Assembly (NCBI GenBank): GCA_029582155.1
Contig: CM055908.1
Coordinates: forward strand, 23,297,103-23,361,102
Length of the DNA: 64,000 nucleotides
Reading direction: 5' to 3'
Source of the DNA: Panopea generosa
Lineage: Eukaryota > Mollusca > Bivalvia > Adapedonta > Hiatellidae
Shown: piece after piece, positions 36,297-64,000 of the stretch
Position numbering within the stretch: the stretch's first letter is position 1
Layout of the letters: every line of letters begins with the position of its first letter
Made by a program: the position numbers and the translations under genes
The notes under the pieces: generated by a model
The model's database searches: none
What the model saw: only the letters and a program-made list of their open reading frames with translations
What the model was told of the DNA's origin: nothing

Positions 36297-37046
36297 ATTT
36301 CTTGATGGATCATTTTCACCAACTGCATGCCATGTTAGAGCTCCTTTCTTCGAGTTATTTTCTTCACCTTTGTTTAATTCAGGATCAACAATTTCTATAT
36401 CCATATCCAAAATTTCAAGCTGTTCATGTTTTTTGTCATTTGCTGCTTTCACTGGAGCAATCTTTGGTCTAACAACCACATATTCATCATTGCTAGATTT
36501 AGAATTCAACAGAAAGTCAGAGTCTAACCTACCGGAGTTACCTTGTTCACTGTGGGGAAGGTTGATATTATTTATTCCAATATTGACATTTAATTCACTA
36601 ACATCTCTATCCTTGCTCCTGTGTCTTTTCTTTTCTTTTTTATCCTTTTTGTGGTTCTTTTTCTTGTCTTTTAATGTTTCTTCAGTGTCATCAACATTAT
36701 TTGTTTCCGTCGTTTCTGTATCGTCTTTCTCAACATCTGAATCACTCTTCTTCTTTGCCTTTTTGTGTTTCTTCCTCTTCACGTTGTCATCAACTTCAAT
36801 GGTTCTAACCATTTCTTCTTTAACTTCTTCTTCCATATCTAAATCAAACTTCACTTTAGATTCCCGCAATGGCAACTTTTCTGTCATGTCAGGCTCATCT
36901 ATTGGTACATCAGTGTTTTGATTGACAAGATCAACTGGTTCACTTACTGTGTTGACAGTGATGACAGGTATGGCGGTAGTGACAGGTGTCACGGGTCTGA
37001 CAGGTGTCACGGGTCTTACAATCCCAGCAGATGAAGGGTTTCTTTT
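36297..37046 (-). CDS. TRPM channel, charged C-terminal linker exon
   Basis: Most 3' exon that I can support (250 codons, phase 0 at both ends; acceptor TTTAAG before 37046). It begins KRNPSSAGIVRPVTPVRP with a short RPVTPV repeat. A long low-complexity stretch alternating acidic and Lys-rich blocks follows (KRKKHKKAKKKSDSD, KDKKKNHKKDKKEKK), then a conserved-looking end (LTWHAVGENDPSRN). I place the donor at GTAAAT (36296-36291). If it is not used, the frame runs to a stop at 36177 with a hydrophobic, intron-like tail. The basic blocks could bind lipids or act as a nuclear signal, but that is speculation. No enzyme domain (NUDT9-H or alpha-kinase) is visible in the window. Confidence 0.72.
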
Positions 37047-37116
37047 CTTAAATAGAAGAATAAAGATAAGTGTAACCTAATTCTGACTTTAAACAACAAA
37101 CATAAAAATAATTAGG

Positions 37117-37120
<4 letters not shown>

Positions 37121-37199
<79 letters not shown>
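37121..37199. repeat. CT/GA dinucleotide microsatellite
   Basis: About 38 CT repeats with one CA interruption. On the transcribed (minus) strand it is a GA run ending about 75 nt upstream of the acceptor of the charged linker exon. Confidence 0.97.
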
Positions 37200-37202
<3 letters not shown>

Positions 37203-38127
37203 CATATTAAGAAAGCAGACTTATTGTCAACTCATACTTTCGTGTCTTGGATATATATTTAATTCTAATTCAAGGTATTACATAAATATTTCAAAGTCAA
37301 TAAAGGGATAATTAAGTCGGTTAAAGAAAGTGACACCGGCTTTACTGCAACTGTAAAATAAAGTTATAAATGTGCCTAATAATAATATTTGTATCTGAAA
37401 ATTTATTGAAACAGAAGCCTGAACGGAAAAAAAAAACTTTCATTACAATTATTTGAAGAAATACAAGTGACCAGATCATTTTTGAATAAACAAATTAACT
37501 TTAAGTCATAAGCAATTGCAAAATTAATCTTATTCAAATAAAATATTGTGTTATTATAATCAAGATTTCATTCTACATGACAACAAACTACAACAAAAAC
37601 ACTAATACATAGTGTACAGGGCGGAAAGCAATAAAAGAAAGGACAAAACAGAAAGGACACAATTATATTTGGTACAAAACCCACTATATAATTATAACAT
37701 TAAATTAAAATTTCAATTTTATATATCAGGCTATGATGAAGACTATAAGTTTTACACTTTACATAACTATGTCGGGAAAAGAAAACAGAGCTTTACACAA
37801 AAACTGAACATTGTGTTGGCTAAGTTATTCATTCATAAAGGTCAAGGTCACCAAAAAAAACAACACTGAATGATTTTGAGTAGAATTACCCAATTCACAA
37901 CTGTAAACGCAAATTAGTGATTGTAGGTCAAATAGCTTTTGAGAAATAGAGCTTATTATAAAAATAATGCCGCCACAGCCCATGGCAAAGTAACACCTAT
38001 ATCTATTTTCTTGTCTTTTAACAGGTGAAACAATAAAAACTAAATATCAAATCTGACAGATAATGCATGTGGAATTGCTATATATTACTATTGTGAATAA
38101 GAGGTACAACTTAAACAACACAGTGCC
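37200..38127. other. TRPM intron, nothing recognised
   Basis: AT-rich intron between the charged linker exon and the exon at 38403. The 85-codon plus-strand frame at 37612-37869 has no support. Confidence 0.5.
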
Positions 38128-38290
38128 TAAAGCAGCAAGTCAAGGGAAAGAGCAAAAGTGACCCTTTAATACAGGTTGTTGCTTAATGCAGGTTAATTTG
38201 CTCTGAAAGCATAGAGATGGGAAATAGCAAATGTGGCTGTTTAAGACAAGTGACTGCTTAATAGAGGTGACCTCTTGGACAGGTTTGACA
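38128..38290 (+). repeat. Dispersed repeat, copy 1 (about 160 bp)
   Basis: Diverged copy of the segment at 57955-58115, in the same orientation. Shared blocks include AGCAGCAAGT, GGGAAATAGCAAATGTG, CAGGTT and GTTAATTTG. Confidence 0.7.
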
Positions 38291-38402
38291 TAGGTGAGGC
38301 CTCTTATAATGATACCAGTCTTCTAATGATATAGATATCGAGTCCAGGTATCATGGAAAATATGGTGAGGTAGCCAGTTACAGCAGCGTTACTGATACTT
38401 AC

Positions 38403-38547
38403 CAGTAAGGACGACCTCTGTCTGTGGAATTCAGGAGGTATGTCGGAGCTGACCACCTTGTCTGACACATCAAGAACACTCTGGACTGAAGGCCACGAGC
38501 GAATAAATGAATCTGTAGACACACCACCGTGTAACAAATGACCATCG
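38403..38547 (-). CDS. TRPM channel, C-terminal exon (SDGHLLHGGV)
   Basis: 145-nt exon (acceptor TTACAG before 38547, donor GTAAGT at 38402-38397). It encodes DGHLLHGGVSTDSFIRSW to PPEFHRQRSSLL and joins phase 2 in, phase 0 out. It lies after the coiled-coil region in the C-terminal tail. No domain was recognised; inclusion rests on intact splice sites and phase continuity with both neighbours. Confidence 0.8.
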
Positions 38548-39039
38548 CTGTAAACAATAAAAAGAGGTGATTGTTTTGCTCCTGGTTGTAGAAATATTTC
38601 ATCAAGACAAGAATGTAAAGTTTCCAAAGAGAAATTGTTTTGCTCTTCACTATAACATTATAAACAAAATCTTATATGTCTTCCCACCAACCCACCACTC
38701 TTTATTACATTTCTGGAGTGTGGCTTTGACCTTTAAGGTAAATACCTTGGTATTGTGTATTAATCATTGTGATTATGTGTTCATCCACAGTCACAGGTTG
38801 TAGTAAAATTACAATATGCATGTTGAAGTTAATGACACCGGGACAGTATGGTTGGACATACAAATGACATTCTGTGTTCCCCACCACCATTGTATAGGCC
38901 TGGACTTTACACACAACACATCATTGTGCTATGTTTATCAACTGTGTGAGGTAATCTTCCCAAGTGTACCCGAAGTAATGACTGTTTATAGCAATAATTG
39001 TAAAGCAGACATGACAAAGGCCCTTCTTTAAGCAATTAT

Positions 39040-39620
39040 TATTAACTGTAACCTGACCTTGACGAGCACACAAATTTATGGTTTTGCACATCACCTCGAT
39101 ATCTTGAGTAAATATGCCAAATTATTTTGAAATCCATTCATTCACGCCAGAATGACCTTCAGATTTAGACCCTACTATTACATTCTGCGATGTGACAAAC
39201 AAATGTCCAAGTTATTTTGAAGCCCATCAATGCATACCAAAGCTATTGAGCAAACACAAATGAGGCCTTCCTGTAAACAATAATATATAAAATGACATTC
39301 AGAGACCTTGACCTTAAAGATGAGGACACAAATATTGGATTCTGCAAGTCAAGCCAACATGAAAGTAAATATGCCAATTTATTTTGAAATTCATCACTGA
39401 ATGCCTTTGTGAAGTCTTGCTGCAAGCCAGAATATGCAAAACGAGAGTCAGTTTGACTTTGACCTTGAAGATGGAGACATATATGTTGAGTTCTGAATAT
39501 GTGATGAGTATATGTGACAAGTTTCTTTGAAATCCACCAATGCGTGCCATAGTTACGGATTGGGCAGGAAACAGGTGTTTATGTAAGTAGAGATATACAC
39601 ATAATAACATTCAATGTGAC
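39040..39620. repeat. Dispersed mollusc-type intronic repeat modules
   Basis: Three to four diverged modules of roughly 150-180 bp carry the recurring phrases GACCTTGACCTT, AAATATGCCAA(A/T)TTATTTTGAAAT, CATCAATGC and CATAGTTA. I recognise this type from introns of bivalves and gastropods, but the family name is not known to me. Confidence 0.65.
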
Positions 39621-39909
39621 CTTAACATAAGGGAAACATTTAAATAAGGGGTACATGTAAGGTTCTGCGTATTACCCAAATGTGATGAGCAAATGTGCTT
39701 TCAATAGCCTTATCAGACATAACAGAAGTGTTAGCCATTTAACAGCCAACAAGTTGAGATAATTGACCTTATAATTGTATGTGTCATGCACTATCTCACA
39801 AAGCCTGAACCTTGGCAGAAAAGGAGTATTAGTCGGAGCACAAACAACAGATTAAGATAAAATACATTATTTCATGTGACAAACAGTACATATATTTAAT
39901 ATAGCCTAC

Positions 39910-40002
39910 CTTGACATGACAAGCGTACTTGCCAGGTCACTGGCATCTGGATGCTGGTCAGCTATGACTTCATCTTCAATCATTTTTGAAAGATCATCCA
40001 CT
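39910..40002 (-). CDS. TRPM channel, C-terminal exon (DDLSKMIEDEV)
   Basis: 93-nt exon (acceptor TTGTAG, donor GTAGGC) encoding VDDLSKMIEDEVIADQHPDA to LASTLVMS. It joins phase 2 to phase 2. The acidic, helix-prone sequence continues the coiled-coil or rib-helix region behind the TRP helix. Confidence 0.82.
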
Positions 40003-40867
40003 CTACAAATTGTAAAATAGTTTAATATGTAAGCTTCCATGTTGTATAGAACTTTTCAGATTTTGCTATCATCATAATGAGACCGGTGGAGAATGGAGTC
40101 AGAAACCCGGTCCAATTCCACCTGTTCTATTGGTTATATCTTTACTACCATCATTGATGCATATATACCAAGGTTGAAAAAGCTTAATTAGGCCATCCTT
40201 AAAAATAAATTGTTTGCCATGCTCCTACCTACTCATTTAAAAATTCAGCTACCCAAACGTTTTATGGTCTTTCGAAGTATTTAATTTTGTTTTCATGATT
40301 TCTGTCCATTTTTCTTTAAAATGACTATGCAAAATCAAAATTTGGCTACCTAGCTACCCACGTGGAAAATACTGGGTCGGAGCGCAGCAAACAAATATTT
40401 TTCTAATGACAGCCTCATAAGACTTAAATCTTATTAATTTTTCATTATACAATTTCATGTTTTAATATATAATTTATTATACACCGGAAGAATTTAGAAA
40501 CAGCAATAAAACATTGAGTTCTCTATCGACTTTTTTGAAATTTATTTTATTTGATAAAAAACTATCTTTCTACCTTTCCTTGACAGTTTCATCAAAGTCT
40601 ATTGTGATTTTCACCTCTTTTTACTGATTAGAAACATACAACACTGCTACCGAAATTCAAAATCAGTATTTCGTACAGTCTCCTTGCACATTGATGCGCG
40701 GGGGTTGTATGTTTCAAATCAATAAAAAGAGGATTACTAAACAAGAATGTGCACCAAATGTTACTGTATGTTCAGCTTCATCTAAAACCTCTATTTAAAG
40801 GTCTAAGTCATGATTTTTCAAAAAGCTAGACGATGATGACCGAAGAGATAAAGAACAACAACAGATA

Positions 40868-41360
40868 CATCTTCCTTTGTGTCACTCATTTACATCTTCC
40901 TTTGTGTCACTCATTTACATCTTCCCTTGTGCCACTCATTTACATCTTCCCTTGTACCCCTCATTTACATTTTCCCTTGTGCCACTCATATACATCTTCC
41001 TTTACTCGGATACGTCTTCCCTTGTGTCACTCATCTTTTCTGTAGTCTATCATACATCTGCCCTTGTGCCACTCATTTACATCTTTCCTTGTGCCACTCA
41101 TTTACATCTTCCCTTGTGCCACTCATTTACATCTGTCCTTGTGCCACATATTTACATCTTCCCTTGTACCACTCATTTACATCTTCCCTTGTGCCACTCA
41201 TATACATCCTCCTTTATGTCACTCAGATACGTCATCCCTTTTACCACTCATTAACATTTTCCCTTGTGCCACTCATATACATCCTCCTTTATGTCACTCA
41301 GATACGTCTTCCCTTGTGTCACTCATCTTTTCTGTAGTCTACCATACATCTTCTATTGTG
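40868..41360. repeat. 25-bp minisatellite beside a TRPM donor site
   Basis: About 19 units of 25 bp (minus strand GAGTGGCACAAGGGAAGATG plus TAAAT). The unit resembles the intron just inside the donor of the exon at 41369-41501. Two places (about 41320 and 41030) also copy the exon end, as CTACAGAAAAGATGAGTG against the true CTGCAGAAAAGGTGAGTG. In the copies the donor GT is AT. Plus-strand open frames of 70-152 codons arise because three units make 25 codons. Confidence 0.93.
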
Positions 41361-41368
41361 CCACTCAC

Positions 41369-41501
41369 CTTTTCTGCAGTCTTTTTACTGTTGCCTCAAG
41401 TGTATTCATATCCCGTGACTTCACGTGACGCAGATAGTTTGTCATATTCTCCTTCTCAAACAACTGTAGGTTCTCCAGGTGGCGGCGACCAATCAAAGGA
41501 C
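41369..41501 (-). CDS. TRPM channel, post-TRP helical exon
   Basis: 133-nt exon (acceptor TTACAG before 41501, donor GTGAGT from 41368). It encodes PLIGRRHLENLQLFEKENMT to EATVKRLQK. The L-x-x-L-x-x-F-E-x-x pattern matches the segment that follows the TRP domain in TRPM channels, where rib helix and coiled coil mediate tetramer assembly. It joins phase 1 in, phase 2 out. Confidence 0.87.
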
Positions 41502-42039
41502 CTGTAAAACAGTATTTATCAATAGATACTAAATCGCTACCTGTCACAGAATAAAAAATAAATATGTAAAATGCGACGTAGTAGTCACCACAGCATCATA
41601 TACTCAATCACTATACAGAATACGTACAACAGGTACAACGCATATAGAGAGTAGAGACAAATCGAGCGTTCACTGCCCTAGAATGGTCAATGGCAAATGG
41701 CACCACTGGGGAGCTTACACAGGTGCATCCAACCTCACTTTCCCCATCCTTCCTTCCTTCAATAGATGAGACAATGTTAATAAAAGTATCCCACCCCATT
41801 ACAGATATGGCAGATATGTGCATATTGTAAAACACAGAAATACTCAGGAAGATATTTTTAAAAAGAACAAGTGATGCTTTACAAAGATGTACTTGATGAC
41901 GACTTTTTCACATGCCCACCAATCACACAGTCCGTGCTGTAATAACAACATGGACATTTTAAGGTAGAGTGGGTCCTGTTCCAAAGGCAGGAGAGTCAAT
42001 TTGTTGAAGAAATGTCATATGTTGACCAGTTAACCCTTT

Positions 42040-42110
42040 ACTTCATATAGACACCTTTGGACACCTCTAATATAGACGCCTTTGGACACCTCTAATATAG
42101 AAAGCTTTTG
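42040..42110. repeat. Short tandem duplication (about 25 bp, 2 copies)
   Basis: Two adjacent copies of a segment containing CCTTTGGACACCTCTAATAT, within the TRPM intron between 41502 and 42948. Confidence 0.75.
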
Positions 42111-42150
42111 ACATTTAGGGTGAATTATGTTTATATTAACTGACAGAGTG

Positions 42151-42241
42151 GAAAACGGTGCAGGAAGTGTTCAGATTGCTCGTGCAGTAAGTGTTCAGAT
42201 TGCTCGTTACTAGCAATCTGAACTCTTCCTGCACTGTTTTC
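42151..42241. repeat. Imperfect inverted repeat / hairpin
   Basis: The left arm 42151-42182 (GAAAACGGTGCAGGAAGTGT and following) is complementary to the right arm 42211-42241 (ending CTGCACTGTTTTC) with few mismatches. The loop contains a second direct copy of GTGTTCAGATTGCTCG-type sequence. It could form a stem of about 30 bp in DNA or intronic RNA. Confidence 0.8.
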
Positions 42242-42948: not shown

Positions 42949-43121
42949 TTTTAGTATGTTTGGAACAGCGTGTGAAAAGCCATTTTGCCACAAGAAAAAT
43001 ATGTACAATGATACTGAATGGTGGTGCAAGGAAGGTTTTGTTGTCGTATTCCATAACCAGGAAGTACATCTCATACTTCCAGATCTCCCTGTTGTTTTTC
43101 TCCACTTGTTTGAACACATTA
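42949..43121 (-). CDS. TRPM channel, TRP helix exon
   Basis: 173-nt exon (acceptor TTTCAG before 43121, donor GTAAGT from 42948). It encodes NVFKQVEKNN, REIWKYEMYFLVMEY and LAPPFSIIVHIFLVAKWL. IWKYEMYFLVMEY is the TRP box and helix (compare VWKFQRY in vertebrate TRPMs), and the LAPPF segment is the conserved piece after it. It joins phase 2 in, phase 1 out. Its first 45 nt and its acceptor are repeated about 34 times upstream, at 43122-45920. Confidence 0.92.
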
Positions 43122-45920
43122 CTGAAACACAATCATAAAGTGCATGTTGCAAAAATGAACAGATCTCTTTGTTGTTTTCTCCACTTGATTGAACACATTA
43201 CTGAAACACATTCATAAAGTGCATATTGAAATAATGAACAGATCTCTATGTTGTTTTTCTCCACTTGATTAAACACATTACTGAAACACAATCATAAAGT
43301 GCATGTTGCATAATGAACAGATCTCTATGTTGTTTTTCTCCACTTGATTAAAAAAAACATAAATGAAAGACAATCATAAAGTGCATGTTGCAATAATGAA
43401 CAGATCTCCATGTTGTTTTGCTCCTCTCATCTTGATTGAACACATTACTGAAACACAGTCATAAAGTGTATGTTGCAATAATGAATAGATCTCCATGTTG
43501 TTTTTCTCCACTTGATTGAACACTTAACTGAAACTCAATCATAAAGTACATGATGCAATAATGAACAGATCTCCATGTTGTTTTTCTCCACTTGATTGAA
43601 CACATTACTGAAACAAAATCATAAAGTGCATGTTGCAATAATGAGCAGATCTCAATGTTGTTTTTCTCCACTTTATTAAAAACATTACTGAAACAAAATC
43701 ATAAGGTACATGTTGCAATAATGAACAGATCTCTATGTTGTTTTTCTCAATTTGATTGCAAATATTACTGAAACACAATCATGAAGTGCATGTTGCAATA
43801 TTGAACAGATCTCCATGTTGTTTTTCTCCACTTGATTGAAAACATTACTGAAATAAGAGTCATAAAGTGCATGTTGCAATAATAAACAGATTTCCATGTT
43901 GTTTTTCTCCACTTGATTGGACACATTGCTGAAACAGTCATAAAGTACATGTTGCAATAATGAACAGATCTCCATGTTGTTTTCCCCCACTTGATTGAAA
44001 ACATTACTGAAACAGAGTCATAAAGACTTAGTGTATGTTGCAATAATAAACAGATTTCCATGTTGTTTTTTTTTCTTTCCTTTCTAGTTGATTGAACACA
44101 TTACTGAAACACAGTCATAAAGTACATGTTGCAATAACAAACAGATCACCATGTTGTTTTTCTCCACTTGATTGCAAGTAATACTGAAACACAATCATAA
44201 AGTGCATGTTGCAATAATGGACAGATCTCCATGTTGTTTTTCCCCACCTGATTGAAAAAATTACTGAAACACAGTCATAAAGTACTTGTTGCAATAATGA
44301 ACAGATCTCCATGTTGTTTTTCTCCACTTGATTGAAAACATTACTGAAACACAGTCATACAGTGCATGTTGCAGTAATGAACAGATCTCCGTGTTGTTTT
44401 TCTTCACTTGATTGAACACATTACTGAAACACAATCATAAAGTGCATGTTGCAATAATGAACAGATCTCCATGATGTTTTTCACCTCTCCATTGGATTAA
44501 ACACATTACTGAAACACAGTCATAAATTACATGTCGCAATAATGAACAGATCTCTATGTTGTTTTTCTCCACTTGATTGAACACATTACTGAAACACAGT
44601 CATAAAGTACATGTTGCAATAATGAACATATTTCTATGTTGTTTTTCTCTACTTGATTGAACACATTTCTGAAACACAGTCATAAAGTGCATGTTGCAAT
44701 AATGAACAGATCTCAATGTTGGTCTCCACTTGATTGAAAACATTACTGAAAGACAGTCATAAAATACATGTTGCAATAATGAACAGATCTCTATGATGTT
44801 TTTCTCCACTTGATTGAAAACATTATTGAAACACAGTCATAAAGTGCATGTTGCAATAATGAACAAATCTCAATGTTGTTTTTCTCCTCTTGATTGAACA
44901 CATTACTGAAACACAGTCATAAAGTACATGTTGCAATAATGAACAGAACTCAATGTTGTTTTTCTCCACTTGATTGAACACATTACTGAAACACAGTCAT
45001 AAAGTGCATGTTGCAATAATGAACAGATCTCCATGTTGTTTTTATCCGCTTGATTGAACACATTACTGAAACACAGTCATAAAGTACATGTTGCAATAAT
45101 GAACAGAACTCTATGTTGTTTTTCTGCACTTGATTGAACACATTACTGAAACACAGTCATAAAGTGCATGTTGCAATAATGAACCTATCTCCATGTTGTT
45201 TTTCTCCACTTGATTGAACACAGTACTGAAACACATTCATAAAGTACACGTTGCAATAATGAACAGATCTCTATGTTGTTTTTTTCACTTGATTGAAAAC
45301 ATAACTGAAACACAGTCATAAAGTGCATGTTGCAATAATGAACAGATCTCCATGTTGTTTTTCTCCACTTAGTTGAACACATTACTGAAAAACAGTCATA
45401 AAGTGCATTTTGTAATAATGAACAGATCTCCATGTTGTTTTTCCCCACTTGATTGAAAACATTACTGAAACAGAGTCATAAAGACTTAGTGTATGTTGCA
45501 ATAATAAACAGATCTTCATGTTGTTTTACTCCTTTCTAGTTGATTGAACACATTACAGAAACACAGTCATGAAGTACATGTTGCAATAACAAACAGATCA
45601 CCATGTTGTTTTTCTCCACTTGATTGCAAATAATACTGAAACACAATCATAAAGTGCATGTTGCAATAATGGACAGATCTCTATGTTGTTTTTATCCACT
45701 TGATTGAAAACATTACTGACACACAGTCATAAAGTGCATGTTGCAATAATGAACAGATTTCCATGTTGTTTTTTATCCACTTGATTGAACTCATTGTTGA
45801 AACACAATCATAATGTGTATGTTGCAATAATGAACAGATCTTCATATTGTGTTTTTTCCTCTCCACTTGATTGAACACATTACTGAAACACAGTCATTAA
45901 GTGCATGTTGCAATAATGGA
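43122..45920 (-). repeat. About 81-bp minisatellite copying a TRPM splice acceptor
   Basis: About 34 tandem units, mostly 81 bp (range about 79-85). On the minus strand each contains TGTGTTTCAGTAATGTGTTC, which is the acceptor and first bases of the TRP-helix exon. The next about 35 nt of that exon follow (GTGGAGAAAAACAACAT, GGAGATCTG), then intronic sequence TTGCAACATGCACTTTATGA leading into the next copy. The true exon is the last unit. Several runs are open for 65-98 codons with a 27-residue period because 81 is a multiple of three. The two units nearest the exon are 79 and 80 bp. Confidence 0.95.
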
Positions 45921-49474: not shown

Positions 49475-51018
49475 TTCCAATGACAGAGGCATAACAACTA
49501 ACAAACTGACAATGGCAAAGGCATAACAACTAACAAACTGACAATGGCAGAGGCATAATAACTAACAAACAGACAATGGCAGAGGCATAACAACTAACAA
49601 ACTGACAATGGCAAAGGCATAACAACTAACAAACTGACAATGGCAGAGGCATAACAACTAACAAACTGACAATGGCAGAGACATAAAAACTAACAAATTG
49701 TCAATGGCAGAGGCATAACAACTAACAAACTGACAATGGCAGAGACATAACAACTAACAAACTGACAATGGCAGAGACATAAAAACTAACAAATTGACAA
49801 TGGCAGAGGCATAACAACCAACAAACTGACGATGACAGAGGCATAAAAACTAACAAACTGACAATAGCAGAGGCATAACAACTAACAAACTTACAATGAC
49901 AGAGGCATAACAACATACAAACTGATAATGACAGAGGCATAACAACTAACAAACTGACAATGGCAGAGGCATAAAAACTTACAAACTGACAATGGCAGAG
50001 GCATAACAACTAACACACCGACAATGGCACAGGCATAACAACTAAGAAACTGACGATGGCAGAGGCATAACAACTAACAAACTGACGATAGCAGAGGCAT
50101 AACAACTAACAAATTGACAATGGCAGAGGCATAACAACTAACAAACTTACAATGACAGAGGCATAACAACTTACAAACTGACAATGGCAGAGGCATAACA
50201 GCTAACAAACTGACAATGGCAGAGGCATTACAACTAACAAACTGACAACGGCAGAGGCATAGCAACTAACAAACTGACGATGGCAGAGGCATGACAACTA
50301 ACAAACTGACGATGGCAGAGGCATAACAACTAACAAACTTACAATGACAGAGGCATAACAACTTACAAACTGACAATGGAAGAGGCCTACAAACTACAAT
50401 GGCAGAGGCATAACAGCTAACAAACTGACAATGGCAGAGGCATAACAGCTAACAAACTTACAATGACAGAGGCTAAACAACTAACAAACTTACAATGAAA
50501 GATGCATAACAACTAACAAACTGACAATGGCAGAGGAATAACAACTAACAAACTGACAATGGCAGAGGCATAACAACTAACAAACTGACAATGACAGAGG
50601 CATTACAACTAACAAACTGACAATGGCAGAGGCATAACAACTAACAAACTGACAATGACAGAGGCATTACAACTAACAAACTGACAATGGCAGAGGCATA
50701 ACAACTTACAAACTGACAATGGCAGAGGCATAACAACTGGCAGAGGCATAACAACTAAGAAACTGACAATGACAGAGGCATAACAACTAACAAACTGACA
50801 ATGACAGAGGCATAATAACTAACAAACTGACAATGAAAGAGGCATAACAACTAAAAAACCTACAATGGCAGAGGCATAACAACTGACAATTGCAAAGGCA
50901 TAACAACTAACAAATTGACAATGGCAGAGGCATAACAACTAACAAACTTACAATGACAGAGGAATAACAACTTACAAACTGACAATGAAAGAGGCATAAC
51001 AACTAACAAACAGACAAT
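49475..51018. repeat. 32-bp minisatellite, about 48 copies
   Basis: Unit of 32 bp: GGCAGAGGCATAACAACTAA followed by CAAACTGACAAT. It starts about 40 nt past the donor of the S5-pore exon on the transcribed strand. Minus-strand open frames of 60-95 codons with L-C-H-C-x-F-V repeats are artefacts. Confidence 0.95.
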
Positions 51019-51925: not shown

Positions 51926-52437
51926 CTAAGACACTGTCATCTAAGGACCATCACTAAGAGTGTGGATTTGAGCCTTGCATAGTCCAGAAACTTTATGTGA
52001 GAATATTTACCAGTTATTTACGAAAGCCCAGTGGTTCTTCTCAGATTCCTTTTGAGGTCTTCCACTAATAAATCTGGAAAAGCCAAATATAACCTGTCTT
52101 GTGTAGAAAATGGTGTTGGATCCCATTAACAAATTCATAAAATTTGCTACATTTATTTCTTACAAAGCATTGTTCTATTGATGAGTTTAAGGGATAACAA
52201 TCATTATAACAATTTTTGCTTGCGATGGCATCCTTAATGTTTTTATCATCATTATAATAATTGTCTTTATTATCATTATTTTATTATGACGGCCAATATT
52301 ATCATTATGTAACGGTTTATAAAAGATAGTAATCTACACATTAATGAGACTTCAGAGGTCATGGGGTCCATCCAAGTCTTGACTTGACACCTCTCAAAAC
52401 CATTCTTCATATCATCACTATTATTGTTCCCAATATT

Positions 52438-52786
52438 TCACTAGCTGTATAGACCTTTGTGATAAAACGCAACCTACCATTATTCGTACCATTTCAATCT
52501 TTGTTCCCAATATTTCCCTAGCTGTATACACCTTTGTGATAAAACACAACCTACCATTCTTCGTATCACTACAATCTTTGGTTCCAATATTTCCCTAGCT
52601 GTATACACCTTTGTGATAAAACACAACCTACCATTCGCCGTATCATTCCAATCTTTGGTCCCAATGTTTCACTAGCCGTATACACCTTTGTGATAAAAAA
52701 ACAACCTACCATTCGCCGTATCATTACAATCTTTGGTCCCAATATTTCACTATCTGTATACACCTTTGTGATAAAACCCAACCTAC
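52438..52786 (-). repeat. 77-bp units copying the S4 exon end and donor
   Basis: The donor string ACCTACCAT (plus strand) recurs at 52472, 52549, 52626, 52704 and at the true donor 52781, a 77-78 bp period. Each unit carries about 60 nt of the 3' end of the S4 exon (ACAAAGGTGTACAC, TTGGGACCAAAGATTG) and the donor GTAGGTTG. The minus-strand frame is open across several units. Confidence 0.95.
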
Positions 52787-52898
52787 CATTCGCCGTATCA
52801 TTACAATCTTTGGTCCCAGTTTTTCACTAGTAGTGTACACCTTTGTGAGACCAATAACAAATCCCGCAGAGTTGAGACAGTACATCACCTTGGTTGCC
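52787..52898 (-). CDS. TRPM channel, S4 and S4-S5 linker exon
   Basis: 112-nt exon (acceptor GTTACAG before 52898, donor GTAGGT from 52786). It encodes ATKVMYCLNSAGFVIGLTKV (S4) and TTSEKLGPKIVMIRRM (S4-S5 linker, compare NKYLGPYVMMIGKM in TRPM3). S4 is poor in positive charge, so voltage sensing is expected to be weak. It joins phase 2 in, phase 0 out. Confidence 0.93.
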
Positions 52899-53009
52899 CT
52901 GTAACAAAATACATTTAATATTGTACTTTCTGTCTTTAAAAATAAATCCACTCTTCTGTTTATTTTACAAAACATATACACGTAATTATCTCATAATAAA
53001 TATTTACTA

Positions 53010-54290
53010 CCTTGCTAACCTCATGAAGTACTTGTACTATTTTGCTTACTTCATAAAGTACTTGTACTATCTTGCTAACCTAATAAAGTACTTGTACTAT
53101 CTCGCTAACCTCATAAAGAACTTGTACTATCTAGCTTACCTCATAAAGTACTTGTACTATCTTGCTTACCTCATAAAGTACTTGTACTATCTTGGTAACC
53201 TTATAAAGAACTTGTACTATCTTGCTTACCACATAAAGAACTTGTACTATCTTGCTAACCTCATAAATGTACTTGTACTATCTTGCTCACCTCATAAATG
53301 TACTTGTACTATCTTGTTTACCTCATAAGGTACTTGTAATATCTTGCTTACCTCATAAAGTACTTGTACTATCTTGCTAATCTCATAAAGTACTTGTACT
53401 ATCTTTCTTACCTCATAAATGTACTTGTACTATTTTGTTTACCTCATAAGGTACTTGTAATATCTTGCTTACCTCATAAAGTACTTGTCATATCTTGCTT
53501 ACCTCATAAAGTACTTGTACTATCTTGCTAACCTCATAAATGTACTTGTACTATCTTGCTCACCTCATAAAGTACTTGTACTAACTTGCTAACCTCATAA
53601 AGTACTTGTAATATCTTGCTTTCCTCATAAAGTACGTGTACTATCTTGCTAATCTAATAAAGTACTTGTACTATCTTTCTTACCTCATAAATGTACTTGT
53701 ACTATCTTGTTTACCTCATAAGGTACTTGTAATATCTTGCTTACCTCATAAAGTACTTGTCATATCTTGCTTACCTCATAAAGTACTTGTACTATCTTGC
53801 TAACCTCATAAATGTACTTGTACTATCTTGCTCACCTCATAAAGTACTTGTACTATCTTGCTAACCTCATAAAGTAATTGTTCTACCTTGCTTACCTCAT
53901 AAAGTACTTATATTATCTTGCTTACCTCATAAAGTACTTATACTATCTTGCTTACCTCATAAAGTACTTGTACTATCATGCTCAACTCATAAATGTACTT
54001 GTGCTATCTTGTTTACCTCATAAGGTACTTGTGATATCTTGCTTACCTTATAAAGTACTTGTACTAACTAGCTAACCTCATAAGGTACTTGTAATATCTT
54101 CCTTACCTCATAAAGTACTTGTACTATCTTGCTCACCTCATAAAGTACTTGTACTATCTTGCTCACCTCATAAAGTACTTGTACTATCTTGCTTACCTCA
54201 TAAAGTACTTGTACTATCTTGCTAACCTCATAAAGTACTTGTACTATCTTGCTAACCTCATAAAGTACTTGTACTATCTTGCTACTCTAG
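53010..54290. repeat. 30-bp minisatellite, about 43 copies
   Basis: Unit of 30 bp: CATAAAGTACTTGTACTATC followed by TTGCTAACCT. It occupies the 3' part of the intron between the S3 and S4 exons. Plus-strand frames with a ten-residue Y-L-I-K-Y-L-Y-Y-L-A period are artefacts. On the minus strand the unit contains a GT-AG-like ATGAGGTTAG string, but no matching exon was found. Confidence 0.95.
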
Positions 54291-55596: not shown

Positions 55597-55739
55597 CTGA
55601 AAAATTTAAAGTATACGTTTGATATAAGCTGTAAGCTTTTTTGACAATTGAGCTAAAATAAATTATCTTTTTTCACTTTTTACATAAGAATGTGCTTATA
55701 TGCAACCTTTGGAATAAAATAGATGTAGAGTAAACTCAC

Positions 55740-57583: not shown

Positions 57584-57954
57584 CAAATCACTTATTACTG
57601 GACAGAAAAAGTATTGGGAGTTGTTTTTTAGGAGACATCGAGTCAAGTTTTGGACCGAACCTGCAACCTTTTGCATGAATGCCCAACACCACACCCATTT
57701 TATTGAGACTGATAGGTATATTTACGAGTTCAATATCAGCAACATATAATATGTTATTTGTTTAAATGGAGAAAACAACAAGTCATCTGATAATGTTAGG
57801 AACTAGTTGCAGTTCTGTTTCCAGTTGTGAGTAAGTTTCTGTTTAATATTGTAAAATGTTTTAATCCGGAACAAGAATTTTTTTTTAATGTCATTCATTT
57901 TCATATGAATATTGAAATCAGTGTTTAAAATTTGAATGAACACTCAAATCTGCC

Positions 57955-58115
57955 TTAAGCAGCAAGTAAAGGGAAGGAATCAAAGTGACCTTTTAAGACA
58001 GGTTCTTTCTAAATACATGTTAATTTGATCTTAAAGCATATAAAAGGGAAATAGCAAATGTGACTGTATAAGGCAATTTGCAGCTCAACAGATGTGATGG
58101 CTTCCACAGGCTTGA
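57955..58115 (+). repeat. Dispersed repeat, copy 2 (about 160 bp)
   Basis: Partner of 38128-38290. Both copies lie in introns of the same TRPM gene. Confidence 0.7.
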
Positions 58116-58244
58116 CTGTAAACATATATTCCTATGGCATCTATTTCAAATATTTTAATAAGACTTTAATGTCGGGCATAATTATACAACTGTTTAAGTA
58201 GCAACACTGATTACTGACAGAGTCCTACTGATGTATCATTGATG

Positions 58245-58440
58245 CCCTTGCTATTGATCGGAAACCAATTTACAAAAAAATAAATAAAAAATATGACTGA
58301 TGCTGACAAATATCAACCTTGAACTGTATTGCATGATTATACAGCTTCACACCAAATATCAATTAATTACAGAAACTCTTTATAACAACAAATTGTTTAC
58401 GTCAGACATACACATGGACGGACAGGGGTAACTTTTAATG
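58245..58440. repeat. Dispersed repeat, related to 49196-49445
   Basis: Contains GATCGGAAACCAATTT, GCTGACAAATATCAACCTTG and GGACGGACAGGGGTAAC, matching blocks at 49196-49445 in order. Confidence 0.6.
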
Positions 58441-58657
58441 CCCTTTCATCATTTTTTAAGTTGCTGGGGCATAATAACAAATTGTGGAAAGTAACAGCCA
58501 AGAAGAAAACTCATTAACATCCACACCTCATGTGGGAAAAACGTACAGTTTATATCATCACTCTGATGCAACGCAGAAAAAAACTTGCCTAAGTGGCAAA
58601 AAGTTGCCATATATCCATATTTACAATCACAGCTTAGGAAACATCTTTAAAGCTTAC

Positions 58658-58795
58658 CGTTCCTAAAGAAAACTTTGAGATCGGCGAGGTGTAATAAGTA
58701 GCTAGTTTTTGATACCATGACATTTTCTCCTTGCCCATCTCTGCTATCTCCATACAAAGCACAATCACAGGGGGACATACTTTAGCAAGTAGAAT
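58658..58795 (-). CDS. TRPM channel, pre-S1 exon
   Basis: 138-nt exon, phase 0 at both ends (acceptor TTCAG before 58795, donor GTAAGC from 58657). It encodes ILLAKVCPPVIVLCMEI, a hydrophobic pre-S1 helix, then GKEKMSWYQKLATYYTSP and ISKFSLGT leading into S1. The Y-x-x-P-I-x-K-F pattern is typical of TRPM just before S1. Confidence 0.92.
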
Positions 58796-59220
58796 CTGAA
58801 TTAATTATGTAATTTTAAACATAACTAAACATTAGATCTTGACATCATCAACGCTAATTTAAATTATAAGTACAAGAAAATTTTATCTTTAAGAATACTG
58901 CAAGACGTTCAATATTTCTACCAATTAATTGGCAGTCAATGACCAAATACTGTGACTTTTTGTAAATTAAGTCACCTTGTAGGTCTTGCTGTAGTTGCTA
59001 TTGTATGGTGATTAGCGTCGCTTTCAACATTTTTCAGCCATATTACTACGGTGTCTATTTGAGACATTATTGTGAGCGCTGCCACACTGGAATATCATAC
59101 AGCAGACACATGGTATGATACCTAATTCAGTCACAGTATACAGACACTGGGCTAACCAAAAATAGAAGAATCCTCTAAATACCGAGAGCCCAGCAAGGAA
59201 GGTTTTAGTACCAATTTTCA

Positions 59221-59300
59221 AGTCTTTGGTATGACCCGGTCAGATATCAAATCCACTACCTTCTGCATGCAAGGTGGGCGCTCTATAACTAGACCATGCT
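59221..59300 (-). mobile_element. tRNA-like SINE head, unclassified
   Basis: On the minus strand, AGCATGGTCTAGTTATAGAG resembles box A and GTAGTGGATTTGATATC resembles a degraded box B, with tRNA-like spacing. No tail was identified. Confidence 0.4.
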
Positions 59301-59524
59301 ATGGTGAAAACCATGAAGCTCTATGTTACCCATATGAATGCAGTATGGTTACAAGAACTATTACCCATAACACAACTATGAACCACATTTGATGTTCCTG
59401 ATGTCAAATATTTCCATAGTAAAACTTAATATTTTGTAGGCTAAGTTAATTATCTATAGATATTCAATATTCTATGAATGAGATTCAATACCATTTACAA
59501 CACATAACATGGTCATACATGTAT

Positions 59525-59690
59525 ATGATATTTATTAGATGAGGAAGACTCAGAATGAATCTGAGTAGAACCATCATCCTTCTGAAAGTAAATGTCAATT
59601 TTCCTCACTTTACGTTTTTAGACATAAATGAAGGTTGTCATTGGATGCCTTTGGTCACTCAGCCACAGAGCACCTCCTGTTATATAGCAA
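59525..59690 (-). mobile_element. tRNA-derived SINE family B, copy 2
   Basis: The minus-strand 3' part GGTTCTACTCAGATTCATTC and the end CATCTAATAAA match the copy at 46060-46225. The head reads GTGGCTGAGTGACCAAAGGC (box-A-like). Confidence 0.6.
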
Positions 59691-59945
59691 GGTCATATGG
59701 AAAAATTCTACTACATGTATACTGAGTGTATACACATTACATAACAACATTCCAATTTGGTAACTCAGGTGAAACAATGTTTTTTCATTGACATCAGAAA
59801 AGTTAAGAACACAAACATGCAGATCTCCATTTTCTTTCAATAAAAATTATTTCCATTAAATATCTTTCCCTTAATGCTTTAAGTGCTTTAATTCTGCTAT
59901 ATGTTTTGTGATAACCTGAACAACATGTCTATAAATGTAACGTAC

Positions 59946-60023
59946 CATTGCCCATCCAGACAGGATTCCGTGTTTCCAGGTGGTCATGATAGAGTTCTGG
60001 CATCCCTCAGATGACATAAACAA
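59946..60023 (-). CDS. TRPM channel, MHR4/pre-S1 region exon
   Basis: 78-nt exon, phase 0 at both ends (acceptor TTCAG before 60023, donor GTACGT from 59945). It encodes LFMSSEGCQNSIMTTWKHGI and LSGWAM. It aligns with the TRPM segment in which F-(M/V)-(S/A) is followed by a Cys/Gln helix and a Trp. The acceptor and first exon bases are repeated upstream. Confidence 0.88.
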
Positions 60024-60440
60024 CTGAAGAAGAGATTGCCAATGTAAGATTAGTATATATGACCGCAACAGAGTTCTGGCATCCCTCAGATGACATAAAC
60101 AACTGAAGTAGAGATTGCCAATGTAAGATTAGTATATATGACGGCAACAAAGTTCTGGCATCCCTCAGATGACATAAACAACTGAAGTAGATATTGCCAA
60201 TGTAAGATTGGTATATATGATAGCAACAGAGATCTGGCATCCCTCAGATGACATAAATAACTGAAGTAGAAATTGCCAATGTTAGATTAGTATATATAAC
60301 AGTGACAGAGTTCTGGCATCCCTCAGATGACATAAACGACTGAAGAAAAGATTGCAAAAGTAAGATTAGTTTATATGACAGAAACAGAGCTCTGGCATTC
60401 CTCAGATAACATAAATAACTGAAGTAGAGATTGCAAGCTG
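60024..60440 (-). repeat. 79-bp units copying a TRPM splice acceptor
   Basis: The exon-derived string CATCCCTCAGATGACATAAA recurs with a 79-bp period (true exon at about 60001; copies near 60080, 60159, 60238, 60317 and 60396). Each unit carries the acceptor TTCAGTTGTTTATGTCATC and about 30 nt of exon, then about 45 nt of intron. Confidence 0.95.
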
Positions 60441-60915
60441 CAGGCATTCCAGCAATCTTATACCTACCAGATCATTATATGGGGCAGCTAGCTACAGGCA
60501 TGTCATATCATTCCGGCAATATTATAGCTACCTGATCATTAGGTAAGGAAGCAAGCTGCAGGCATGTCATATCATTCCAGCAATCTTATACCTACCAGAT
60601 CATTAGATGAGGCAGCAAGCTGCAGGCATATCATATCATCCCAGCAATCTTATACCTACCAGATCATTAGATGAGACAGCAAGCTGCAAGCATGTCATAT
60701 CATTCAAGCAATCTTATACCTACCTGGTCATAAGATGAGGCAACCAGCAGCAGGCATGTCATATTATTCCAGCAATCTTATACCTACCTGATCATTAGAT
60801 GAGGCAGCCAGCTGCGGACATGTCATATCATTCAAGCAATCTTATACCTACCTGATCATAAGAAATGGCAGCCAGCTGCAGGCATATCATATCATTCCAG
60901 CAATCTTATACCTAC
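60441..60915 (-). repeat. 64-bp units copying a TRPM donor site
   Basis: The donor-side string CTTATACCTAC (plus strand) starts at about 60457, 60521, 60585, 60649, 60713, 60777 and 60841, with the true donor at 60905, an exact 64-bp period. Each unit holds about 51 nt of the 3' end of the preceding exon (TGGAATGATATGACATGTCT, GCTGCCTCATCTAATGATC) plus 13 nt of intron including GTAGGTATAAG. Confidence 0.95.
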
Positions 60916-61057
60916 CTGATCATTAGATGAGGCAGCCAGCTGCAGACATGTCATATCATTCCAGCAGGGAGATTTCCGCTCCACAATCATCATTGCCTTA
61001 TCAGGGTCTTTCTGGTTACATTCATTAAGAACATTGGTAGCCAACTCCTCAAACTTC
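60916..61057 (-). CDS. TRPM channel, MHR exon (FEELATNVLNEC)
   Basis: 142-nt exon (acceptor TTCCAG before 61057, donor GTAGGT from 60915). It encodes KFEELATNVLNECNQKDPDK, AMMIVERKSPCWNDMTCLQL and AASSNDQ. F-E-x-L-A and W-x-x-x-T-C-L-x-L-A are hallmarks of the TRPM homology region before S1. It joins phase 2 in, phase 0 out. Confidence 0.93.
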
Positions 61058-61258
61058 CTGGAACACATGAGATACAAACAGTCAGGACAATACAAGTGAC
61101 TTAGTAGCAGTAATTTCTTCTTCAAGATGATAGATACAAAAAATCAGTAAATACAAGTAAATCAGTAACAGTAAAATTAAACAGAAAACAGGAGGCATAT
61201 GGTTATTTGAGTATTGGCGTCCCAACAGTTGCTACTGCTACAAAGCTCAGATACTTAC

Positions 61259-61402
61259 TGCTTGTAGGTAATTAACTTGTCTTTGATGATGAACTCATGC
61301 CTTGGTAAATGTCTGGCCATGGCACTGTACAGTCTTGTTGCTGCTAAAGCACTTGTGACGGGCTCGTCCCCCATCTCCCAGAAAAACATAGCCATACTTT
61401 GT
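61259..61402 (-). CDS. TRPM channel, MHR exon (MAMFFWEMGDEPV)
   Basis: 144-nt exon (acceptor CGGCAG before 61402, donor GTAAGT from 61258). It encodes QSMAMFFWEMGDEPVTSALA, ATRLYSAMARHLPRHEFII and KDKLITYK. M-A-x-F-F-W-x-x-G-x-E is the best conserved TRPM MHR motif. It joins phase 2 in, phase 2 out. Confidence 0.94.
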
Positions 61403-61830
61403 CTGCCGGTAGAAACAGTATATTTCATGTAAGTCAATTTCTTACTTAACATAGCATTTAAAAAATTACTCTACCATCAATGTTTAAAATGAATTGATAT
61501 TGGTTGTTTCCAACTGTTATATCTTTTAACATTGCCTTTTATTCCAAGGATCACCAAAAAATGTATTGGTTAACTGTTATACATTATAAATACCTTATTT
61601 GCAATATTCTTCATAGGTTTGTTTACTATTTAAACTTCATTTGCTTCATTAAGCACCTAGACTGGTAAGTAGGAAACTTATTCGATTTGTATGTTCCCTA
61701 TATAAACTTGCAAAATAATTGGAAATCCCATGTAATATAAACACTTTTACACAATCAGCAAATATAGATAAGTTCTATTTGTCAGCCTGAAAATAAAGGG
61801 GACCCTTTTGTTAATTTCTACTGAATTTAC

Positions 61831-61968
61831 CTATTCAAGAGTACAGCCCAGATGAAGAGATGTTTAAATGGGTTATTGTATTTTGCCGTGTTAAAATCGA
61901 ATGTTTCAACATCAGGGTCTTCCAGATCCAACTCAGCCAACCCAAGGATATCTTTGTCTTCATCATAC
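61831..61968 (-). CDS. TRPM channel, MHR exon (DPDVETFDFNTAK)
   Basis: 138-nt exon (acceptor TATACAG before 61968, donor GTAAAT from 61830). It encodes YDEDKDILGLAELDLEDPDV, ETFDFNTAKYNNPFKHLFIW and AVLLN. P-F-K-x-L-F-I-W-A-V-L is the usual TRPM lead into R-Q-x-M-A. It joins phase 2 in, phase 2 out. Confidence 0.92.
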
Positions 61969-62890
61969 CTGTATATGAAACAGAAACAATATATCTACAT
62001 TTGATATATGCTTAAACATTTGCTATATCTGCGTTATTTTGACAATTTGTACAAAGCTTGCCTTGGGCGAGAAAACAAAAGTACAATACCTACATGTGCA
62101 GTGTTTATTTATTCTTTTCTGGTTTCCACATTTTTAGTATCATTTTAATTGTTTCCCTCTCGTGTAGGATTTATCTTTTTAAGGAGTTTTCCCATGTTTG
62201 ATACACACAGAATGATCACAAAAAACTATAATTACGACTCAAGCAATAGACTAGCATCAAAGTCTTAATAGTTATTCAAAATTATTCAAACAACCTGATA
62301 ATAAGAAAACTATAGCATTTCACCGAACAACAGCAGATATGAAAAATTACATCCAACTACCGCTGGCTACTTAACACTATACAGTAACCTGTATTAGCAA
62401 TAACCAATTATCACGATATTCACGAAGACCATTAACATGTTTGTAACTGCTGCTTTGTTTATATATACATGTACACGTACCTGTATTTGGATAGGTTAGA
62501 ATTTGACATGCAGTATGCTTCAAATTGAATTGAAGTGGAAGCTCAAAAGTACAAAAAATTTTACAGCTGTTTGTTTGACAACATACATTATACTGAATGC
62601 TACCGATATATCTTATGGTGAACAAAAGTACTTGCCCATTCATAAAATCATGACATATTTTATACAAGTATTAACCTAGTGTGATATCAATGCAGACTCA
62701 TTTCTTGGTGTTCTGAAAATGCTTGAGTCTTGTTCATCAAAAACTGCACTACTTTTGGACTTACCGAACATGTAAATGCGTCAATTAATTATCGAAAATG
62801 GCATTACATGTAATTTGCAATGTTGACATCATAAGATGACACAAACTATTACATTAATTAGTGTCTTGTAAAAAGTATTCTAGTGTCTTG
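61969..62890. other. TRPM intron, nothing recognised
   Basis: AT-rich intron. The 96-codon minus-strand frame at 62377-62667 is Cys-rich but has no splice sites in phase and no TRPM resemblance. Confidence 0.5.
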
Positions 62891-62899
62891 AAGTGATGA

Positions 62900-63190
62900 T
62901 TGATTGATTGAATATTAAGCATAATTTTATGCCATCGAGGGCTAACAGACAATCAGTTAACCTAACCACTGTTTCGTGTGAATTGGAAGGCTAACCAGTA
63001 CTCGAGAACACCCCATCTCCGCAAGTAAATGATAACTTTCCTACTTGAATCAACAGTGAGAGATGAATGATAATGAGACACAATGTTATATACCAGTCAT
63101 CAAGGAGACTGTTGCCGGGAGGGGATTCGAAATCAGGACCCCTGGATTGATAGCCGGGCGTGTTACCGATTGAGTTTATCAGGCCTGGCT
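62900..63190 (-). mobile_element. tRNA-derived SINE family A, reverse copy
   Basis: Near-complete: the tail GATTGATTGATTGAATATTA is at 62900 on the plus strand, the body ends near 63110, box B (minus GATTTCGAATCCCC) is at about 63121-63134 and the head ends near 63187. Confidence 0.92.
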
Positions 63191-63424
63191 TGGAGTGATG
63201 AAATAAAAAATAAATAGTAAATGCAAAATGTTTGTACATGTATTTTATGTGATTAAACCAAATCTCACATTCATGCTCATTTGTTATAAAATCTTATAGC
63301 CAATTTATCAAATAAATACAACCATATATAAGCACTCACGTGAGATCCTTTATATATGATAACTAACTTTACTTTCATGTTTTTACAAATATTACTGACA
63401 GGCAACAAACAGATTTCAACTTAC

Positions 63425-63528
63425 CTGTCAAACAGTCTACGAAGCAATAGGCAGACATTTTCTCTGGTTATTTCCTCTTTTCCCGTCAGTTGAAACAGCA
63501 GATGATATAAGGGATTATGCTTGGGAAT
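63425..63528 (-). CDS. TRPM channel, most 5' exon in the window
   Basis: 104-nt exon (acceptor TGGCAG before 63528, donor GTAAGT from 63424). It encodes IPKHNPLYHLLFQLTGKEEI and TRENVCLLLRRLFD. P-L-Y-x-L-(L/V) matches the N-terminal MHR segment of TRPMs (compare T-L-Y-H-L-V). It joins phase 0 in, phase 2 out. The exon start is repeated upstream, so which copy is spliced cannot be decided from sequence alone. This one is chosen because only it continues in frame to a donor. The N-terminal part of the channel lies beyond 64000. Confidence 0.86.
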
Positions 63529-64000
63529 CTGCCATATACATGTAGCAATCATTAATACAAGTTTATGAGAGGCACATGGTTTTACAGTAGAGCACCAAAC
63601 CCAGTAGAGATTTCTCCCCACAGTTGAAACAGCAGACGATATAAGGGGTCATGCTTGGGAATCTGCCATAAACATGAAGCAATCATAAATACAAGTTTAT
63701 GAGAGGCACATGGTTTGATGGTAGAGCACCAAACCCAGTAATGTTTTCTCCCCACAGTTGAAACAGCAGACGATATAAGGGGTCATGCTTAGGAATCTGC
63801 CATAAACATGTAGCAATTATAAATACAAGTTTATGAGAGGCACATGGTTTAATGGTAGAGCACCAAACCCAGTAGAAATTTCTCCCCACAGTTGAAACAG
63901 CAGACGATATAAGGGGTCATGCTTGGGAATCTGCCATAAACATGTAGCAATTATAAATACAAGTTTATGAGAGGCACATGGTTTAATGGTACAGCACCAA
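63529..64000 (-). repeat. 134-bp units copying a TRPM acceptor and exon start
   Basis: The exon string CAGTTGAAACAGCAG (plus strand) occurs at 63487 (true exon), 63621, 63755 and 63889, an exact 134-bp period, and the array runs off the window. Each copy keeps the acceptor ATGGCAG and the first 40 or so exon bases (IPKHDPLYRLLFQL), then turns into intron at GGGGAGAAA instead of the rest of the exon. Confidence 0.95.

What the first reader, a model, noticed from the sequence alone, without database searches (positions are those of the whole stretch)
36297..64000. One TRPM gene with splice-site-copying minisatellites at six boundaries
Arrays at 63529-64000 (134 bp), 60441-60915 (64 bp), 60024-60440 (79 bp), 52438-52786 (77 bp) and 43122-45920 (about 81 bp) all have units made of 30-60 nt of the adjacent exon plus its splice site plus a little intron. 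A sixth, at 40868-41360 (25 bp), adjoins a donor and includes copies of the exon end. In each case the true exon is at one edge of the array. The units share no sequence, so the same process must have started independently at each boundary. Intron growth by repeated splice-boundary duplication is the simplest reading. Several consequences follow: many decoy splice sites, length polymorphism, and possible splicing modulation by copy number.
Basis: partly seen in the sequence, partly recalled or inferred. Interest (0 to 1): 0.88.

Follow-up and report, generated by a model that had tools for sequence, protein, structure and literature searches.

The report
Minisatellites that copy exon edges
In this ion-channel gene of what looks like a bivalve, short pieces that straddle the edge between coding and non-coding DNA have been copied in tandem many times, which lengthens introns with rows of seemingly unused splice sites, a thing already known from lancelets.

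Summary
A TRPM gene lies on the minus strand (16 in-window exons, all modelled sites GT-AG, one open frame, gapless against 12 of 12 aligned homologues at three key junctions). Five arrays have units that straddle an authentic splice junction (33-62 nt of exon, the splice site, some intron). A sixth is mostly intronic: two copies carry the exon end, without its GT. Intron 4 consists of copies of its own two boundaries. Such arrays are known from lancelets as "mirages", so the kind is not new. The held genome allowed controls. A tandem paralogue (95.4% exon identity) carries the same arrays at the same boundaries with other copy numbers; one further boundary has 12 copies here and one in the paralogue; another TRPM gene has arrays mostly at other boundaries. 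In the largest array decoy sites decay like the rest of the unit, and using any of 52 decoys would add a stop codon, so neutral intron growth fits better than splicing control. Boundary arrays exceed random placement (8 seen, 1.2 expected in this gene; 7 seen, 2.7 expected in four other TRPM genes, P = 0.01), mostly through two genes. No sample beyond TRPM genes could be obtained.

The parts
63425..63528 (-). TRPM exon E1 (first exon in the window); its acceptor lies in the last unit of the 134-bp array
63487..64000 (-). 134-bp acceptor array of E1; continues to 20.1 copies beyond the window (L009:1-2174)
60916..61057 (-). TRPM exon E4; donor CAG|GTAGGT
60445..60966 (-). 64-bp donor array of E4: 51 nt exon + 13 nt intron per unit; 7 decoys, all with GT
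60024..60915 (-). Intron 4 (892 bp), made of E4-donor units and E5-acceptor units that meet at a TTGC overlap (by eye); 49 bp if both arrays are reduced to one unit
   Evidence: 49 bp is arithmetic on those
59991..60434 (-). 79-bp acceptor array of E5: branch-point-like TACTAAT, pyrimidine tract, AG and 33 nt exon per unit; 5 decoys, all with AG
59946..60023 (-). TRPM exon E5
52787..52898 (-). TRPM exon E9 (LGPKIVMIRRM end); donor ATG|GTAGGT
52399..52848 (-). 77-bp donor array of E9: 62 nt exon + 15 nt intron per unit; 5 decoys with GT, the last one damaged just downstream of it
43080..45918 (-). 80-bp acceptor array of E12: 38 nt intron + 42 nt exon per unit; 34 decoys, 30 with AG
42949..43121 (-). 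TRPM exon E12 (after S6)
41369..41501 (-). TRPM exon E13; donor AAG|GTGAGT
40866..41382 (-). 25-bp donor-side array of E13; two longer copies carry the exon end, donor GT lost in them

Best explanation
These are 'mirage' minisatellites. A short tandem duplication that happens to straddle a splice junction is harmless, because the exon-contiguous copy of the site keeps working and the extra copies fall into the intron. The duplicated tract then expands and contracts like any minisatellite (unequal exchange or replication slippage), so the intron grows in unit steps and fills with intact but unused splice sites. The exon-edge copy stays under protein selection while the decoys drift and partly keep an older version of the exon edge. 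Shown: anatomy, inheritance through a gene duplication, copy-number change, neutral decay of decoy cores in the one large array. Inferred: the exchange mechanism, that the authentic site wins because of its full exon context (exon definition), and that transcripts are normally spliced.
For: Continuous model with all modelled sites GT-AG, gapless at E4|E5, E9|E10 and E11|E12 in 12 of 12 aligned homologues (12 of the 120 listed). Units straddle the junction. The tandem paralogue has the same units at the same boundaries with other copy numbers (134 bp: 20 vs 4; 64 bp: 8 vs 5; 79 bp: 6 vs 6; 80 bp: 35 vs about 5). Intron lengths differ accordingly in 5 of 6 such introns (E1 acceptor intron +2103, I11 +1712, the 67762 intron +663, I4 +192, I13 -292 bp; array-poor I3 +2). 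Acceptor 67762 has 12 copies here and one in the paralogue. Paralogue exons keep AG and GT at 15 of 15 in-window exons E1-E15. Decoy cores: 50 of 54 intact; in A12 30/34 = 0.88 against a mean of 0.877 for all dinucleotides. At 7 of 11 sites where this gene's exon edge differs from its decoys, the paralogue's exon has the decoy base. Lancelet mirages are reported not to disturb splicing (passages).
Against: No RNA was available. Decoys score about as well as authentic sites (38 of 52 within 1 bit), so why they would be ignored is inferred. In arrays A4, A5, A9 and A1 cores are fully intact (20 of 20); samples are small and 38-89% of all dinucleotides there do as well, so selection for them is not excluded there. 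Third codon positions vary more than first and second in A12 decoys (0.109 vs 0.040 and 0.055), not significantly (Mann-Whitney p = 0.064) and driven by two columns; singletons are even (9, 10, 8). Intron 9 is shorter here (-773) although its boundary array is longer. At 4 of 11 exon-edge sites the paralogue does not have the decoy base.
Confidence: 0.86

Rival explanations
1. No preference for boundaries: this genome is full of minisatellites, and some seeds land across splice junctions by chance and are tolerated. (This concerns only where arrays start and is compatible with the rest of the best explanation.)
For: Arrays are dense everywhere (44 TRF rows, some overlapping, in 64 kb). The wholly intronic 32-bp array of intron 10 has 49 copies here and about 3 (101 bp) in the paralogue and adds about as much intron (+1472 bp) as boundary arrays do. 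Two other TRPM genes have 0 boundary arrays (0 of 1 and 0 of 9 arrays). By a cruder measure, 30.7%, 19.0% and 21.3% of 600 random positions in three genes, array interiors included, have a strong nearby copy, against 6 of 44, 5 of 30 and 4 of 34 boundaries; this counts arrays by length and is not matched to boundaries, but it gives no excess.
Against: With one unit per array: in-window 5-6 of 13 arrays on boundaries against 1.0-1.1 expected (P 2e-3 to 1e-4); whole modelled gene 8 of 19 against 1.18 (P printed as 0.00000 in 100,000 draws). These are biased because the gene was chosen for the pattern. In four TRPM genes not chosen for it 7 of 35 against 2.73, P = 0.010, mostly from one gene (5 of 15 against 1.81).
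Confidence: 0.4
2. The arrays are splicing regulators: decoy sites titrate the spliceosome or make poison extensions, and copy number tunes output.
For: Decoys are strong (38 of 52 within 1 bit of the authentic site), and all 52 would introduce a stop codon if used, which suits a poison switch.
Against: In the large array decoy cores are not conserved beyond the unit average; copy numbers differ several-fold between paralogues; boundaries hit differ between TRPM genes. Stops are expected by chance in such extensions (inference). Not tested with RNA.
Confidence: 0.06
3. Assembly artefact: a repeat wrongly expanded by the assembler.
For: No reads were available; long tandem arrays are a known weak spot of assemblies.
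Against: Units differ mostly by substitutions, and the same units with their own variants stand at the same boundaries of a separate paralogue about 100 kb away. Copy numbers could still be wrong.
Confidence: 0.03

Closest known systems
Lancelet (amphioxus) 'mirages': Adh3, globins BflGb6 and BflGb9, troponin C, PGBD5 (PMC3087553 and PMC3902484, passages read; the original Adh paper, gkf386, is not held and was not read)
   Same: Minisatellite-like tandem copies spanning an exon-intron boundary, donor or acceptor; many copies keep AG/GT; copy number unstable; units of 10-160 bp in the passages read.
   Different: Probably a mollusc, not a cephalochordate; eight boundaries in one gene; one intron made of its own two boundaries; a paralogue pair showing inheritance, copy-number change and one presence/absence case; decoys that partly keep an older exon edge; a neutrality check on decoy cores. 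RNA was checked in lancelets, not here.
[quoted passage not shown] Rogers 1989, seen only as a cited reference)
   Same: A duplication crossing an intron-exon boundary passes on ready splice signals.
   Different: There a new intron is spliced out; here no new intron is shown, only longer old ones.
Ordinary intronic minisatellites of molluscs (27-bp repeat in abalone TSSK1-like intron 3, PMC6905558, passages read)
   Same: Intronic tandem repeat with copy-number differences.
   Different: Nothing in the passages read says it copies an exon edge.

Membership tests
mirage minisatellite (lancelet definition) | Tandem units span an exon-intron boundary | tested here: met
   Five of six window arrays; the E13 array only in two copies
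mirage minisatellite (lancelet definition) | Both donor and acceptor boundaries can be affected | tested here: met
   Acceptors E1, E5, E12; donors E4, E9
mirage minisatellite (lancelet definition) | Many but not all copies keep AG/GT | tested here: met
   50 of 54 decoy units in the five window arrays
mirage minisatellite (lancelet definition) | Copy number is unstable | tested here: met
   Between tandem paralogues; alleles and somatic tissue not tested
mirage minisatellite (lancelet definition) | Regular splicing is not disturbed | not testable with these tools
   No RNA; only the open model and gapless homologues
intron gain by tandem duplication | A new intron absent from relatives is spliced | tested here: not met
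   The model needs no new intron; the paralogue has AG/GT at the same 15 exons E1-E15
TRPM channel | TRPM sequence family, pre-S1 region and S1-S6 | tested here: met
   TRPM4, 5, 8, 3, 2 and 7 chains in PDB, best E 3.4e-59; bivalve TRPM-like 2 proteins, best E 2.8e-229

The most novel reading that the evidence does not exclude
In this animal, exon-intron junctions are preferred birthplaces of minisatellites across the genome, so boundary duplication is a standing engine of intron growth that leaves a fossil record of old exon edges inside the introns.
Probability: 0.35. Interest if true: 0.75.

Novelty: new member of a known kind. Interest (0 to 1): 0.6.

Why it matters
It carries a curiosity described in lancelets to a distant animal and gives it a time axis. 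Two tandem paralogues separated by 3.6% at fourfold sites (9 of 250) show boundary arrays inherited, expanded and, in one case, present in one copy of the gene only. Rows of near-identical competing splice sites in one gene are natural experiments on how the spliceosome picks one site. If boundaries are truly favoured, intron length in such genomes grows from the exon edges. Gene annotation also has to guard against decoy exon ends.

Tried and rejected
Chance overlap as the whole explanation: weakened but not excluded. Codon-position bias in decoys: not significant. Degenerate mirages at the other 25 window boundaries: none above background.

Literature: searches showed no mollusc case in the titles and abstract beginnings listed. 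Some lists were capped (20 of 69, 15 of 78, 12 of 15), the library is open-access only, and mollusc papers in the lists such as PMC3862624 and PMC7084494 were not opened. So absence from print is not established.

Errors of mine: the E9 junction index was off by one (0 of 5 GT kept); one search uses the right index and gives 5 of 5. In one search the A9 and A12 copy counts come from a loose pattern and are not used. In one search the paralogue's boundary list lacks E5 (later found at 26728), and its E12 array stops short of the junction in TRF, so 5 of 30 there is a lower bound. The four-gene test covers only the modelled part of each gene (10, 16, 34 and 22 boundaries).

Genome-wide sample outside the TRPM family: not obtained, see below.
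Full report
WHAT WAS CHECKED. TRF on the window finds arrays at all six places named. The gene was modelled on the minus strand from ORFs, homologues and splice signals: 16 exons, E1 63528-63425 to E16 37046-36182 (the end of E16 is uncertain), 15 donors GT and 16 acceptors AG, one frame without stops. PDB sequences identify it as TRPM, and the closest named proteins are TRPM-like 2 of Ruditapes philippinarum and Mercenaria mercenaria, so the source is probably a bivalve. In an alignment with 12 of the 120 listed homologues, the junctions E4|E5, E9|E10 and E11|E12 show no insertion in 12 of 12; the junction before E1 was not covered. An automatic spliced alignment gave the same in-window junctions wherever it made a call.

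ANATOMY. Units straddle the junction in five arrays: E1 acceptor (134 bp, 42 nt exon), E4 donor (64, 51), E5 acceptor (79, 33), E9 donor (77, 62), E12 acceptor (80, 42). The E13 array has a 25-bp unit from the donor side of the intron; two longer copies carry the exon end, and none keeps GTGAGT. Intron 4 (892 bp) runs from E4-donor units straight into E5-acceptor units, meeting at a TTGC overlap (by eye); reducing both arrays to one unit leaves 49 bp (arithmetic: 892 - 7x64 - 5x79). E5-acceptor units carry TACTAAT, a branch-point-like motif (recalled), about 25 nt before the AG. The E12 array holds an internal longer repeat of about 1452 bp (unit patterns at 45673-45508 and 44221-44050, by eye).

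DECOYS. By anchor search there are 52 decoy junctions (3, 7, 5, 4 and 33); the unit tables hold 54, of which 50 keep AG or GT. With a weight matrix from this gene's own sites, 38 of 52 score within 1 bit of the authentic site. Used as the splice site, 52 of 52 would meet a stop codon inside the extended exon (for E1 the frame is that of E1 itself, since the upstream exon is outside the window). In the large E12 array the AG is kept in 30 of 34 units, 0.88, against a mean of 0.877 for all dinucleotides; in the four small arrays all cores are kept (20 of 20), but 38-89% of dinucleotides there do as well. So in the E12 array decoy sites are neither guarded nor purged; the small arrays cannot tell.

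THE PARALOGUE. The window lies at C15:23297103-23361102 of a held 1.47-Gb genome. I fetched 20 stretches of 10 kb covering the 5' part of the gene and five more TRPM regions; a sixth locus with three matches on C3 was not followed. About 100 kb away lies a tandem paralogue: 144 differences in 3124 exon bases over 21 exons (95.4%), 9 of 250 at fourfold sites, and AG/GT at 15 of 15 exons E1-E15. It carries the 134-, 64-, 79-, 77-, 80- and 25-bp arrays at the same places, so they are older than the gene duplication, the fused centre of intron 4 included. Copy numbers: 20 vs 4 (134 bp), 8 vs 5 (64 bp), 6 vs 6 (79 bp); 35 vs about 5 (80 bp). Intron lengths here minus there: E1-acceptor intron +2103, I11 +1712, the intron of the next paragraph +663, I4 +192 (three 64-bp units), I13 -292 (its array is longer in the paralogue), all with the sign of the array difference; I9 -773, against it (the paralogue holds another 335-bp repeat there). 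Array-poor I3 +2, I12 +283, I8 -107. Intron 10, with a wholly intronic array, +1472. Growth by minisatellite is therefore general, not special to boundaries.

A BIRTH OR A COLLAPSE. Acceptor 67762 of this gene (L009:3762) has 12 units of 70 bp; the paralogue's acceptor 31775 has one copy, in flanks 92% and 97% identical. The exon breakpoint is GATGACT|TTATC and the intron side lies at a TAAC repeat, with about 2 nt in common (by eye). Gain here is the simpler reading; full contraction in the paralogue would look the same.

FOSSIL EXON EDGES. Over the five arrays the authentic exon edge differs from its decoy consensus at 11 sites; at 7 of the 11 the paralogue's authentic exon has the decoy base: E1 3 of 3, E12 2 of 2, E9 2 of 5, E4 0 of 1. 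Decoys in part keep an older exon edge, and the exon is not fully homogenised with its decoys.

MORE THAN CHANCE? Treating each array as one unit dropped at random: in the window 5-6 of 13 arrays on boundaries against 1.0-1.1 expected, P 2e-3 to 1e-4 (circular shifts reached 5 in 4 of 2796); whole modelled gene 8 of 19 against 1.18. The gene was picked for the pattern, so the fairer sample is the four TRPM genes not picked for it and not its near-identical copy: 7 of 35 arrays against 2.73, P = 0.010, at 82 modelled boundaries; by gene 0 of 1, 0 of 9, 5 of 15, 2 of 10. Of the five in one gene, four lie at junctions not hit here and one at the E13 donor, hit in both. Three of the seven reach only 9-15 nt into the exon (2.0, 17.3 and 46.0 copies). 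In six of these arrays and two outside-window parts of the own gene, a decoy check found the core context in 118 of 130 copies; the 12 misses include 6 of 6 at one donor where the copies differ at the last exon base tested. A cruder control, random positions with array interiors included, shows no excess at boundaries; it counts arrays by length and is not matched. A preference for boundaries is likely in this family and unproven for the genome.

KNOWN KIND. Lancelet genes have the same structures, called mirages, with regular splicing and copy-number instability (PMC3087553, passages; PMC3902484, passage). That a full-exon site beats a partial copy is in line with exon definition and with old tandem-splice-site experiments (recalled, not read here). 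A mirage can become a new intron in principle (PMC3087553 model; potato case PMC4974935, abstract), but nothing here shows that.

VERDICT. Real, and well explained as largely neutral mirage minisatellites, with an unusually clear history. I saw no mollusc case in the lists, some of them capped. No splicing function is indicated. The open question is whether boundaries are hotspots, and it can be settled with the annotated genome.

Noticed in passing
window 53005-54283 (-): A 30-bp, 42-copy array in intron 8 whose unit holds a donor-like GAGGTAAG (14 exact copies; 53 donor-like hits in 1.28 kb against 7 per kb in array-free intron), with no known exon beside it; the paralogue has a like array.
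   Followed up: partly
window 49478-51018 (-): A wholly intronic 32-bp array just after the E10 donor, 49 copies here and about 3 (101 bp) in the paralogue; the likely cause of a 1472-bp intron difference.
   Followed up: partly
window 38403-63528 vs L011-L014: Differences between the two tandem TRPM copies are not concentrated at third codon positions (40, 33, 39 of 685 codons; 79 amino-acid-changing against 24 silent codons), which may mean relaxed or diversifying selection. The count includes E15, which has gaps and reads into a stop in the paralogue and inflates it.
   Followed up: no
window 19626-30704: An 11-kb 52-bp minisatellite with AAT runs inside, between the TRPM gene and its neighbour.
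   Followed up: no
window 13789-18414 (+): A neighbouring gene with a 7-helix, adhesion-receptor-like 610-aa frame; a 56-bp array starts about 100 bp past the preceding open frame, not on a boundary as far as seen. Identification by eye.
   Followed up: no
window 11328-12826 (-): Frames resembling LINE-type reverse transcriptase and endonuclease pieces; identification by eye.
   Followed up: no
L022:6480, L023:813, 1699, 1832, 5632; L026:2797; L027:5964: Boundary arrays in two other TRPM genes of the same genome, with periods of 75, 43, 77, 147, 43, 50 and 43 bp (six of the seven also).
   Followed up: yes
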